A DNA stretch of 64,000 nt from assembly GCA_021608145.1 (NCBI GenBank), contig JAKIHM010000008.1, positions 1 through 64,000 on the forward strand, written 5' to 3'. The stretch is from Thermovorax subterraneus. GTDB taxonomy: Bacteria > Bacillota > Thermosediminibacteria > Thermosediminibacterales > Thermosediminibacteraceae. How positions within the stretch are numbered: position 1 is the stretch's first letter; each line of letters begins with the position of its first letter. The notes below the pieces were generated by a model that did not search any database, was not told where the DNA came from, and saw only the letters and a program-made list of their open reading frames with translations. This document shows positions 2,614-50,236 of this stretch, one piece after another. A program made the translations under genes and the position numbers.

Positions 2614-2646
2614 AAAAATAAGGGCTTAAAAGGCCCTTATTTTTTT
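2614..2646 (+). terminator. Terminator after secF
   Basis: AAATAAGGGC (2616-2625) pairs with GCCCTTATTT (2633-2642), and a T run follows to 2646. Confidence 0.9.
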
Positions 2647-2698
2647 ATAATTAAAAGCCTTTTTCCGTGGGAAAATATTGTTGAAGGAGGGAAAAAGA

Positions 2699-3988
2699 AT
2701 GAAAAGGTATTCGCAGTTGGTGCGACATGACGGCAACAGCTGCCTTTTTGACATTATAGACGTTGCAATTCTTTCAACTTATGCGGATGTTCCGGTGCAC
2801 ATTCATGTGGAAGGATTGAGAGGTACGGGAAAAACTACTATTTTAAGAGCCTCCCGCAATATTTTCCCTAAAATCGAGCGAATAAAAGGGTGCGAATACA
2901 ATTGCGATCCGAAAGAACCTCACTGTCCCAACCATAAAGACCTTCCCCCCGAAGAAATCGAAAAAATTGGCGTAGAACTGATAGATATGCCTTTTCTTGA
3001 AATATCCCATTCAGCCAAAAAAGGGACAGTAGTGGGAAGTATTGACGTGGGGAAACTCTTGTCCAAAAATAATCCTCAGGCGGCATTGCTGCTAGGGACC
3101 ATCCCACGAGCTCACCGGGGTGTGATTTTTATAGACGAAATAAATCGCCTTGCTGATACATCTCCTGAAATCGTAGATATTTTGCTGGATGTTATGGGAA
3201 CGAAGCCAGGCAGGATTCAGATAGAAGAGACCGGTTTGCCCACCGTAGAAATACCGGTAAAGGTGAGCGTCTGGGCTGCGTCAAACCCCGATGAAGACCC
3301 GGGACCGCTGGAAAACATTCGGCGCCAACTTTCGGATAGATTTGATTTTGTAGTAGATGTGGAAAAGCCCAAAAGCATCGGGACTGTCCTAGACATACTA
3401 GAATGCCGTCAACAAAAGGAAAATTTGGAATTGGAAAGAGAAAAAGTAAAAAAGTTTATTGAAGCAAGGAAGAAACTATCAGAATTTCAAGTTCCAGAAG
3501 AATTGAAAACGACACTGGCATCAATGTACATTAAGTATGGGCTAGAAAGCATAAGGGGATTGGAATCTATACTGCATGGAATCTGGATTTTAAGTGCACT
3601 ACAAGGTAAGAAGCCAGAAGTAAAGGATTTAGCTTATCTTGTGAGAGTAGCTTTAAAACATAGAACAGACAGTAAAAATTTGGCTGAAATATTAAAGAAC
3701 CTGGAAAATTTAAACTCAAAGAATGCTGAAGTTTTTCAAAGACAACAAATTGAACTGTCGGGCAAAGAAAATATAGCAAGCTCCAAGCAAAGGGAAAAAA
3801 ATAAAAACAATAATAATAATATAGATATTTTTAGGAAAATGTTTTCAATTTTTTCAAGAGCCCTGAAGGGAAAGACTTTGCGTAAAATAGAGTCTAAGAA
3901 TGTAGAGATATGTGCACCGAGCAAAAAAGCCGTACCATTGAGACAGCTGGATTTTAATGATTGTGTTAAAACGGAGGATGAGCTTTAA
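2699..3988 (+). CDS. AAA+ ATPase, Mg-chelatase subunit I-like, function unknown
   Basis: The 429-residue protein has Walker A GLRGTGKTT near residue 38, Walker B VIFIDEINRL near residue 141, and a ChlI/MoxR-style sensor stretch (SNPDEDPGPLE, then LSDRFDF). A small cysteine cluster, C-x3-C-x6-C near residue 64, may bind metal. The last 90 or so residues are Asn/Lys-rich and look disordered. ATG 2699 follows AAGGAGGG. The stop overlaps the start of the VWA gene (TAATG), as in translationally coupled I/D-type pairs. Nothing here suggests chlorophyll synthesis, so a chelatase name would be misleading; the pair more likely remodels or loads an unknown target. The fold is secure, the role unknown. 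Confidence 0.85.
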   Translation: MKRYSQLVRHDGNSCLFDIIDVAILSTYADVPVHIHVEGLRGTGKTTILRASRNIFPKIERIKGCEYNCDPKEPHCPNHKDLPPEEIEKIGVELIDMPFLEISHSAKKGTVVGSIDVGKLLSKNNPQAALLLGTIPRAHRGVIFIDEINRLADTSPEIVDILLDVMGTKPGRIQIEETGLPTVEIPVKVSVWAASNPDEDPGPLENIRRQLSDRFDFVVDVEKPKSIGTVLDILECRQQKENLELEREKVKKFIEARKKLSEFQVPEELKTTLASMYIKYGLESIRGLESILHGIWILSALQGKKPEVKDLAYLVRVALKHRTDSKNLAEILKNLENLNSKNAEVFQRQQIELSGKENIASSKQREKNKNNNNNIDIFRKMFSIFSRALKGKTLRKIESKNVEICAPSKKAVPLRQLDFNDCVKTEDEL

Positions 3989-5634
3989 TGATTAAACTAT
4001 TAGAAAAAATAAAGAATGAATTTGCAAAAGGAAAAGGAGTTCGAATAGGTGAAGCAGCAGTAGTAAGCAGAAAAATACACGTAATTTCTCCGGAACGCCC
4101 TCATTTGGTTCGAATTATCACTAATTCTGATGCAGGAAAAGTTTTTTATAACAGGTTCAATGAAGGCGAAATTGTGCATGTAGATTTATTTCATGAAGTA
4201 AAAAAGGTAGACGTAAAAAAAGTTGCAGAAAACCTTTTAAAAGCACTCGCAGAGGTTTCTAAGGAGTCTCTGGGGGATTTTATAGATATTCAAACGGGCA
4301 GCGGAGGAGGAAGATTGACTGGCACCCTAAATTACGGTAAAACTGAGAGCCTTTTAAAAAACCATTTGAATCACGTGCACCTTGCTGTTTTGCTCGACAA
4401 TGACAATTTAGATTTTTTACTTTTTTTAATAATTAAATTGGAAGAAGCTCTGTTAGAGCAAGGTGTAGAGATAAGAAAAGTAGAAAAAATTAGAAATGAA
4501 ATCGGCAATACTCCGTACGACCTTTCACCTTATGCGACAAATTCAGACTCATTTTTAAAACAAACCAATCTCAGCAAAGAGCCCTTTACAGAAAATGAAT
4601 ATCAGAGAGCTATTGATTTGAGCGAATATTTTGGTAGCATAAACGAATTACAGGAACTTCTAGAATACTTTAAGTCTGAAAAAAGAAAGGACCTTTTTGA
4701 GTTAAAGAAAAAGTACGGAGATTTGGACGAAATTTTAGCTCGCCTGGAAAGGAATGATATTGTTTGTAAAAAATCTGGTGTCTACAATTTGACAAAGGAA
4801 GGAGAAAGTCTCATTGAATATATAAAACAAAATAATAAAGAACTAGAGTTGATATTGAAGAAAATGATAAGAGAACTTCCTAAAAAAGGGGAAAAAATAA
4901 TAACACCAGCCTTCGGAAACGTTAAAAATACGCCAAAAAACAGGGGAATTGTATCAAAAAAAATTTATAATAAAAATGAATGGCTCGAAGAAATCGAAAT
5001 AACAGAGACGATAAAAAGAGCTTTAATTAGGTGTTATACAGAAAGAAAAAGATTGTCAATTTCAACTGAAGACATCGTAATTGTCAAAAGGTCTTTTGAA
5101 AAGGGACAAGATATTTGCCTGCTTATAGATGCAAGTGCTAGCATGGCAGGGGAAAGATTAAGGAGTGCAAAATATTTGGCGAAACATATTGTTTTAAATT
5201 CCTATAGAAGAGTCAGCGTCCTTACTTTTCAAGAAAAAGAGGTTAAAATTTGCGTTCCCTTTACCAAAAATTTCAGCCAGGTAGATTATGGTGTAAGCAG
5301 CATAGCATCTTCAGGCCTTACTCCTCTAGCCCTTGCCTTGGAGAGGGCACTATCCTATATGTGCTCTAAAAATTTAAAAAACCCGTTGATTATGCTGGTG
5401 ACAGATGGAATTCCTACTGTGCCGGTTTGGAGTACAGATCCCGTAAAGGATGCAATTATTGCTGCTCAAAATATTAGAAAGAAAAAAATAGATTTCTGCT
5501 GTATTGGCTTACAACCAAACAAGGACTGCCTCACTAAGATAGTTGAGGCTGCACATGGAAAACTTTACATCGTAGATGAGTTAAATAGAGATGTACTAGT
5601 GAACGTATTAAATAATAGCAGACAATTGATTTAA
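3988..5634 (+). CDS. VWA-domain protein, Mg-chelatase subunit D-like partner
   Basis: A 548-residue protein coupled to the preceding ATPase gene by a TAATG overlap. Residues about 375-545 form a von Willebrand A domain with a complete MIDAS metal site: DASAS near 380, a Thr in SGLTPL, and Asp in TDGIP. The N-terminal 130 residues contain a Gly-rich stretch (TGSGGGRLTG); the middle (about 200-280) looks like a winged-helix segment. AAA+/VWA pairs of this build usually form a motor plus a metal-dependent adaptor. No terminator is visible after it; recJ has its own promoter. The target is unknown. Confidence 0.82.
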   Translation: MIKLLEKIKNEFAKGKGVRIGEAAVVSRKIHVISPERPHLVRIITNSDAGKVFYNRFNEGEIVHVDLFHEVKKVDVKKVAENLLKALAEVSKESLGDFIDIQTGSGGGRLTGTLNYGKTESLLKNHLNHVHLAVLLDNDNLDFLLFLIIKLEEALLEQGVEIRKVEKIRNEIGNTPYDLSPYATNSDSFLKQTNLSKEPFTENEYQRAIDLSEYFGSINELQELLEYFKSEKRKDLFELKKKYGDLDEILARLERNDIVCKKSGVYNLTKEGESLIEYIKQNNKELELILKKMIRELPKKGEKIITPAFGNVKNTPKNRGIVSKKIYNKNEWLEEIEITETIKRALIRCYTERKRLSISTEDIVIVKRSFEKGQDICLLIDASASMAGERLRSAKYLAKHIVLNSYRRVSVLTFQEKEVKICVPFTKNFSQVDYGVSSIASSGLTPLALALERALSYMCSKNLKNPLIMLVTDGIPTVPVWSTDPVKDAIIAAQNIRKKKIDFCCIGLQPNKDCLTKIVEAAHGKLYIVDELNRDVLVNVLNNSRQLI

Positions 5635-5645
5635 TAAAAAATTCA

Positions 5646-5674
5646 TTGATATAACGTTTCGGTTGTTTTATAAT
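5646..5674 (+). promoter_or_regulatory. sigma-A promoter of the recJ operon
   Basis: TTGATA (5646-5651), 17-bp spacer, TATAAT (5669-5674). Confidence 0.8.
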
Positions 5675-16815: not shown

Positions 16816-17008
16816 AGTCAATTTCCCTGCTGTGTGCGTGGACCTGACAGAGGAAAGAGCCAACACTATGACATAGGGAGTCCGGACTCTGGATGTGGAT
16901 TGTATGCCCTCCTTATGAGAGGGAAACATGAATCATCCAGGAGGACACCCACGTGGGAGAGCAGGGTCTCTGTTCCTTGTCAGTACACGGCATGGCGGGG
17001 TTTTTGTT
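16816..17008 (+). ncRNA. ssrS: 6S RNA (RNA polymerase-binding regulatory RNA), probable
   Basis: This is the bulk of the 320-nt gap between aspS and the csoR-like gene. About 190 nt can fold as a long interrupted rod, the 6S shape. Bases 16825-16837 pair with 16983-17000 near the ends; GATTGTATG with CATGAATC and CCCTC (16907-16911) with GAGGG (16919-16923) build the apical arm. The same 5' strand can instead pair with AGCAGGG (16960-16966). The RNA ends in a GC-rich stretch and T run. B. subtilis 6S-1 also lies beside aspS. 6S RNA mimics an open promoter and holds housekeeping RNA polymerase in stationary phase. Identity is by structure and position, not a database match. Confidence 0.75.
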
Positions 17009-49594: not shown

Positions 49595-50236
49595 AGTAGT
49601 ACATTTCGGTAGTTAAGGTGGAACAGGTGGTGCAGTATTCTAGTCGAAATCCTCTTCTCTGAAGACGGGGCTAAAAATCCGTCGAGGGCACATCGATGAA
49701 GTTCCTTGTGCTGGCTTTCGACGCCCAGTCGGGGGTTGGTGCAGGGAGTAAGGGAGTGGGGCAACCTGCAAAGGCATGCAGGCGCGACCCTACTTCCGTG
49801 GAGACCTAAGTGCGTGATGGAAGGCTAAAAGCCTCCTGTTACGGCTTAGGGCGTGAACCTGCATCCGATACAAACCGTGTTGGGTGCAGTGTAGCCTGCC
49901 TTGAGCGGGAAGGGTGGAAAAAGGGAAAACGCATTTAAACTGGCCATTTAAATGCGGCTTAATTACCTTTGAAACCCTTACTGCAAAAGAGGCTAGGAGA
50001 AGGTGGATTTCGGTGAGGAAAACTCCTAGACTGTTCCGAAAGGAAGTGGACTGAGGATTGCAGTGCGGACTAAGTGGCAATCCAGCCCTGCCTTTGGCGA
50101 CAAGGCAGAGAGAGGCGTAAAGGGGAACCGCCTTTTCCGGCGACGGGAGGTGCTTCTCTGGGAAATCCTGCTGGACCTAAGCCGCAAAATTTACTCAGTT
50201 CACTACCTCCTGTTCCACCTCGTTTGAGGTGAATTT
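49595..50236 (+). ncRNA. ole: OLE RNA (ornate, large, extremophilic)
   Basis: A gene-free, GC-richer stretch of about 640 nt. Its ends form a long-range stem: 49616-49627 pairs perfectly with 50209-50220 (12 bp), and TGGTG with CACTACC adds to it. In between are many short helices and G+A-rich joints. OLE RNAs are about 600 nt, belong to anaerobic or extremophilic Firmicutes, lie near isoprenoid genes and are followed by oapA, exactly as here. The RNA forms a membrane ribonucleoprotein with OapA and has been linked to alcohol, Mg2+ and cold stress in Bacillus halodurans. Call rests on size, context and end pairing. Confidence 0.92.

What the first reader, a model, noticed from the sequence alone, without database searches (positions are those of the whole stretch)
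2699..5634. AAA+/VWA pair between secF and recJ with no known substrate
The ATPase looks like a Mg-chelatase I subunit and its overlapping partner like a D subunit with a full MIDAS site, but no tetrapyrrole or B12 genes are present. The ATPase has an unusual Cys cluster (C-x3-C-x6-C) and an Asn/Lys-rich tail, the partner a winged-helix-like middle. secD-secF-recJ are usually neighbours in Clostridia, so the pair looks like an insertion. It may be an undescribed remodelling system.
Basis: partly seen in the sequence, partly recalled or inferred. Interest (0 to 1): 0.7.

Follow-up and report, generated by a model that had tools for sequence, protein, structure and literature searches.

The report
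Spore-linked AAA+/VWA protein-remodelling pair
Two overlapping genes encode an ATP-driven motor and its partner that look like the engine of magnesium chelatase but are not one; they form an undescribed family found almost only in spore-forming Bacillota, and in many lineages they carry a forespore-type promoter, so they probably act during spore formation.

Summary
An AAA+ ATPase (2699-3988) overlaps a VWA protein (3988-5634) by one base. They are a distant I/D-like pair, not a chelatase. A profile finds the ATPase in 116 of 398 Bacillota genomes at over 200 bits, while true BchI/ChlI relatives score at most 136. The CobN/ChlH subunit is absent from this genome and from 47 of 50 pair genomes tested. 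The pair is not a recent insertion: secD-secF-AAA-VWA-recJ-relA is conserved over about 19 families, and one close relative has lost exactly these two genes. The 'unusual' Cys cluster is a Cys3His variant of the Cys4 knuckle found in related cobaltochelatase-type ATPases. New points: (i) the partner's N-terminal ~190 residues form a domain unknown to Pfam, NCBIfam and PDB, with near-invariant His31, Asp48, His64, Asp66, His69, His129, His131 and Glu152, a likely metal or catalytic site; (ii) upstream of the ATPase in many lineages lies a forespore (sigma-F/G-type) promoter, like that of spore-protein (SASP) genes in the same genomes; (iii) 112/116 pair genomes have spoIVA, against 222/282 without the pair. 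Best reading: a forespore-expressed AAA+/VWA remodelling or metal-insertion chaperone with an unknown client. Expression, client and metal are untested.

The parts
2614..2644 (+). intrinsic terminator after secF, separating secDF from the pair
   Evidence: 14-bp stem plus T run; folds at -18.3 kcal/mol, z -2.7; aligned terminators in relatives
2649..2677 (+). putative forespore-type promoter: AATTA ... TGGGAAAATA (-10 at 2668-2677)
   Evidence: conserved throughout the order; de novo motif over 85 loci; only copy of this pattern in the genome. The window's own copy is weak against a SASP-derived matrix
2684..2691 (+). ribosome-binding site AAGGAGGG
   Evidence: sequence
2699..3988 (+). AAA+ ATPase, BchI/ChlI-like, 429 aa
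2813..2836 (+). Walker A GLRGTGKT
2891..2935 (+). Cys3His knuckle C-x3-C-x6-C-P-x-H, invariant in the family
   Evidence: homologous to the Cys4 knuckle of cobaltochelatase-type ATPases
3119..3145 (+). Walker B GVIFIDEIN
3914..3985 (+). conserved C-terminal tail motif (P..KA.PL..L...VKTE.EL) after a variable linker; possible tether
   Evidence: alignment
3988..5634 (+). VWA partner, 548 aa
4030..4587 (+). new N-terminal domain with near-invariant S27 H31 D48 H64 D66 H69 T103 G106 G108 H129 H131 E152
   Evidence: 73-sequence alignment; no match in Pfam, NCBIfam or PDB
4714..4836 (+). winged-helix-like region
   Evidence: PF14947 hit in 31 of 73 relatives
5110..5586 (+). VWA domain with MIDAS D381-x-S-x-S, T445, D473
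5646..5674 (+). sigma-A-like promoter for recJ (TTGATA-17-TATAAT), so recJ need not be cotranscribed with the pair
   Evidence: 11 of 12 matches

Best explanation
The two genes form a two-protein ATP-driven machine. Shown: a conserved AAA+ of the chelatase (helix-2-insert) branch that nearly always precedes a VWA protein with a full MIDAS, in one of many genomic places. Inferred from families of this kind (NorQD, CbbQO, MgCh I/D): the ATPase forms a hexameric ring, stiffened by its zinc-type Cys3His knuckle; the VWA part docks on the ring and grips a client through MIDAS; ATP turnover twists the VWA part against its N-terminal domain. Inferred here: that domain, whose conserved His/Asp residues alternate along predicted strands, holds a divalent metal or is catalytic, so the machine most likely remodels a client and loads or activates its metal site. 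Inferred from promoters and distribution: in the ancestral setting it is expressed in the forespore by sigma-F/G, so the client is probably a forespore or spore protein. The system can be lost, so it is accessory.
For: Distinct, sharply separated family. Chelatase H subunit absent from 47 of 50 pair genomes. Near-invariant His/Asp/Glu set in a domain without known relatives. Invariant Walker, knuckle and MIDAS residues. The Foldseek match list for the model includes the NorD VWA domain bound to NorQ (9qh6, E 6e-8). Promoter: a priori two-box pattern in 34% of ATPase upstreams, against 6% of 685 control genes and 4% of shuffles; de novo motif GNATNAAA..GGNAANANTA; a matrix built only from SASP promoters of the same genomes passes 39% of the 38 recJ-context loci at the 5% control threshold, against 0/39 recJ, 0/38 relA and 1/42 secDF. 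spoIVA in 112/116 versus 222/282 genomes. Two-gene unit with its own terminator and promoter.
Against: No client or third gene shared by all contexts. The forespore-type -10 is found in only 14 of 34 families and is missing in several lineages (f16, f20, f33). The window's own copy scores low with the SASP matrix. The spoIVA association is confounded by ancestry, and 222 spore-former genomes lack the pair. Both structure models are poor (pLDDT 54 and 39), so neither the metal site nor the interface was seen. Some genomes carry ATPase copies without a VWA gene nearby, and one family has a VWA without the N-terminal domain.
Confidence: 0.47

Rival explanations
1. A vegetative AAA+/VWA maturation chaperone for a common anaerobic metalloenzyme. 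The sporulation link is a by-product of ancestry, and the upstream motif is another regulator's site.
For: Housekeeping neighbourhood secDF-recJ-relA. No forespore-type site in 20 of 34 families. Known AAA+/VWA pairs mature metalloenzymes (NorQD, PMC13036017; CoxD, PMC3471820).
Against: Enrichment of an independently derived forespore promoter matrix at this gene but not at its neighbours. No metalloenzyme gene constantly neighbours it in any context.
Confidence: 0.28
2. A divergent Mg or Co chelatase whose H subunit is diverged or elsewhere.
For: Homology to both halves of TIGR02442. The genome makes corrins (CbiC).
Against: CobN/ChlH absent from 47 of 50 pair genomes. CbiC absent from 12 of 26 pair genomes. 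No chelatase or corrin operon in 86 neighbourhoods. Where CobN occurs, a separate canonical ChlI is also found, in one case a few kb from it. Scores far below the chelatase cut-offs.
Confidence: 0.03
3. A conflict or defence system of the MoxR-vWA type.
For: Core AAA+/VWA logic shared with the ternary systems (PMC7159879). Patchy presence; some tandem VWA copies.
Against: No third component or variable effector. Stable synteny and co-divergence with housekeeping genes. None in viral contigs or, at family level, in plasmids.
Confidence: 0.05
4. A nucleic-acid remodelling machine, with the winged helix binding DNA or RNA and the His-rich domain acting as a metal-dependent nuclease, perhaps in forespore DNA maintenance with RecJ.
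For: Winged-helix signal. Catalytic-looking residues. recJ neighbour in 38 loci.
Against: recJ has its own promoter and the pair is elsewhere in many genomes. Winged helices also mediate protein contacts. No nuclease fold recognised.
Confidence: 0.08

Closest known systems
Magnesium chelatase I (BchI/ChlI) and D (BchD/ChlD)
   Same: ATPase fold and motifs by sequence (1g8p, 8osf); VWA with MIDAS as a partner
   Different: No H subunit, no tetrapyrrole operon; Cys3His knuckle; partner has a new His/Asp N-terminal domain and a winged helix instead of the AAA-like N-half of ChlD; only about 30% identity
Putative cobaltochelatase TIGR02442 / CobN-linked ChlI of Bacillota
   Same: Best family match of both proteins; Cys4 knuckle homologous to the Cys3His one
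   Different: Two separate proteins, no CobN; scores 136 and 91 against a 779 cut-off
NorQ/NorD (also CbbQ/CbbO, CoxD/CoxE)
   Same: Two-gene AAA+/VWA machine without an H subunit; VWA protein with an extra N-terminal domain; VWA match to NorD
   Different: Those are MoxR-branch ATPases next to their client genes; here a chelatase-branch ATPase and no client gene
MoxR-vWA ternary conflict systems (PMC7159879)
   Same: AAA+ plus VWA core
   Different: No third component and no effector domains

Membership tests
Magnesium/cobalt chelatase | I-type AAA+ ATPase above family cut-off | tested here: not met
   TIGR02030 107 versus 467; TIGR02442 136 versus 779 bits
Magnesium/cobalt chelatase | H/CobN catalytic subunit in the same genome | tested here: not met
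   PF02514 absent from G000 and from 47 of 50 pair genomes
Magnesium/cobalt chelatase | tetrapyrrole or corrin genes in the operon | tested here: not met
   86 neighbourhoods
Magnesium/cobalt chelatase | ATP-dependent metal insertion into a porphyrin or corrin | not testable with these tools
   needs biochemistry
AAA+/VWA remodelling pair (general kind) | adjacent AAA+ of the helix-2-insert branch and MIDAS VWA protein | tested here: met
AAA+/VWA remodelling pair (general kind) | physical complex, ATPase stimulated by the VWA protein | not testable with these tools
   no complex prediction offered; single-chain models poor
MoxR-vWA ternary system | conserved third component (VMAP, iSTAND, FtsH or beta-propeller) | tested here: not met
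   no third gene common to the contexts
Forespore (sigma-F/G) regulon | sigma-F/G-type promoter | tested here: inconclusive
   met at family level by enrichment; weak for the window's own copy under the SASP matrix and missing in 20 of 34 families
Forespore (sigma-F/G) regulon | expression lost in sigF or sigG mutants | not testable with these tools
   needs transcriptomics

The most novel reading that the evidence does not exclude
A previously unrecognised sporulation module: a forespore-specific AAA+/VWA machine with a new metal-binding domain that loads or activates a spore metalloprotein. It would be ancestral to large parts of Bacillota and missing from the Bacillus and Clostridium models, which would explain why it was never found.
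Probability: 0.3. Interest if true: 0.8.

Novelty: new variant of a known kind. Interest (0 to 1): 0.58.

Why it matters
Sporulation genetics rests on Bacillus subtilis and a few clostridia. A conserved ATP-driven remodelling pair with forespore-type promoters in deep-branching Bacillota would be a developmental component outside those models. Its new His/Asp domain makes a concrete, testable prediction about metal handling by AAA+/VWA machines. It also warns that 'Mg-chelatase' annotations of this pair in Bacillota are wrong.

Tried and rejected
Chelatase reading: rejected. Recent insertion: rejected. LapA-like gene or cation diffusion facilitator as third component: rejected, both also sit in the secF-recJ slot of genomes without the pair. 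Class-III aminotransferase, GerMN, murI or response-regulator neighbours as partners: lineage-specific. Upstream Spo0A boxes (TGTCGAA): 5/85 versus 7/683, too weak after several patterns. gpr promoters as a second control: start codons could not be fixed, inconclusive. Own-genome search for other genes with the window's promoter: none. Structure prediction: only a few sequences were allowed in the alignments and the models were poor; the fold search is therefore informative for the VWA part only. Viral and plasmid homologues: none of the family. First 30-nt SASP matrix was dragged into the RBS and was replaced.

Full report
Observation. Sequence searches place the ATPase with ChlI/BchI (4e-25 to 1g8p; 1e-33 by profile to 8osf). 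They place the partner with VWA domains and the D-half of TIGR02442, but far below the family cut-offs.

The family. A profile of 22 ATPases (A1) scanned over 398 Bacillota genomes gives 116 genomes with matches at E below 1e-60, mostly 420-670 bits. The next matches are canonical ChlI-like proteins at 135 bits and below. The gap is wide and the family is easily told apart. Seventy-three VWA partners align over their length with invariant MIDAS residues. No member was found in viral contigs, and plasmids gave only distant BchI-like or VWA matches. Phyla outside Bacillota were not searched.

Not a chelatase. CobN/ChlH (PF02514) is absent from this genome and from 47 of 50 pair genomes in the test set. 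In three that have CobN (G094, G182, G253), canonical ChlI-like genes separate from the pair were seen for G094 and G182, and in G094 one lies about 6 kb from cobN. CbiC, a marker of corrin synthesis, is present in this genome (another contig) but absent from 12 of 26 pair genomes. None of the 86 neighbourhoods has tetrapyrrole genes (neighbours were named from sequence, not all by database search).

Not a recent insertion. In 38 of 85 loci, spanning about 19 families, the pair stands directly or nearly directly before recJ, usually after secF. ATPase and VWA distances correlate with those of recJ and relA (Spearman 0.56-0.62, no permutation of 999 as high). Genomes without the pair have secF and recJ with other genes in the same slot: a cation diffusion facilitator, a LapA-like gene, or nothing. 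So the slot is variable and the LapA-like gene is not tied to the pair. G015, in the same genus as G010 and G011, has the same upstream genes but lacks exactly the two genes, so the pair is dispensable and lost as a unit. Elsewhere it sits beside a response regulator and a GerMN-domain gene, mnmG, coaX-type genes, rapZ or ftsK. The VWA gene is the only near-constant companion. A few genomes have extra ATPase copies without a VWA gene at the locus, tandem VWA copies, or a VWA partner without the N-terminal domain.

Anatomy. The Cys cluster C-x3-C-x6-C-P-x-H is invariant. CobN-type ChlI relatives have C-x3-C-x8-C-x2-C at the same place, so this is a Cys3His variant of an existing knuckle, probably zinc (inference). 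The Asn/Lys-rich stretch is a linker of variable length and composition ending in a conserved motif, possibly a tether (inference). The most striking part is the first ~190 residues of the partner. H31, D48, H64, D66, H69, H129, H131 and E152 are conserved in 71-73 of 73 sequences, with S27, T103, G106 and G108. H64/D66 and H129/H131 alternate along strands predicted by a low-confidence model. No Pfam, NCBIfam or PDB match was found. A metal or catalytic site is the simplest reading, but it is inferred. A winged helix follows (31 of 73 members), then the VWA domain, whose structural matches include NorD in complex with NorQ.

Transcription unit. A terminator (2614-2644) separates secF from the pair. 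recJ has a strong sigma-A-like promoter of its own (5646-5674). Between terminator and RBS, relatives in the same order share (A/T)WTTA-N14/15-(T/G)GGRAAAATA. A de novo search over 85 loci returned GNATNAAA-N12-GGNAANANTA. This resembles forespore promoters (B. subtilis sigma-F GYWTA / GGNRANANTW, from general knowledge; [quoted passage not shown] An a priori two-box pattern occurs in 34% of ATPase upstreams, 6% of 685 control genes and 4% of shuffles. This loose pattern was written after looking at the upstream sequences; the strict textbook sigma-F -10 alone gives 21% versus 6%, and the strict two-box sigma-F form gives none. As a positive control I took SASP genes from the same genomes. Their promoters read GTATW-N15-GGTTATATTA and similar. 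A matrix built only from these puts 39% of the recJ-context ATPase loci above the 95% control quantile, and 0/39 recJ, 0/38 relA and 1/42 secDF. Limits: only 14 of 34 families carry the -10 in at least half their loci, and the window's own copy is weak under the SASP matrix. The pattern is unique in the genome.

Distribution. spoIVA is present in 112 of 116 pair genomes and 222 of 282 without the pair (Fisher 2e-6). Two of the four exceptions are incomplete bins. Shared ancestry inflates this figure, so it is support, not proof. Many spore-formers lack the pair, so it is not a core sporulation gene.

Interpretation. The pair works like NorQD/CbbQO in architecture (two proteins, no H subunit, VWA with an extra N-terminal domain; mechanism from PMC13036017), but its ATPase belongs to the chelatase branch. 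I think it most likely that it is a client-remodelling, probably metal-loading, machine used in the forespore. Shown: family, motifs, synteny, promoter enrichment, absence of the chelatase subunit. Inferred: ring, docking, metal, client and timing.

Noticed in passing
window 49611-50225 (+): Complete OLE RNA (RF01071, 516 bits), the ornate large extremophilic RNA.
   Followed up: no
window 16821-17005 (+): 6S RNA (RF00013, 105 bits).
   Followed up: no
L099, L110, L115, L116, L117: Copies of the ATPase with no VWA gene at the locus, several in one genome (G085 has four copies, one paired).
   Followed up: partly
L053, L054, L092, L093, L095: Two or three tandem, diverged VWA partners behind one ATPase gene.
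   Followed up: partly
L145, L147, L148: VWA partner of about 290 aa lacking the N-terminal His/Asp domain, next to the ATPase in an ftsK-rimO neighbourhood.
   Followed up: partly
L185, L189-L203 (secF-recJ slot): The secF-recJ interval is a variable slot in Bacillota that repeatedly holds a cation diffusion facilitator and/or a LapA-like gene.
   Followed up: partly
upstream of the ATPase in L052, L100, L102, L109, L113: TGTCGAA (Spo0A-box-like) 57-82 nt before the start; weak statistics.
   Followed up: partly
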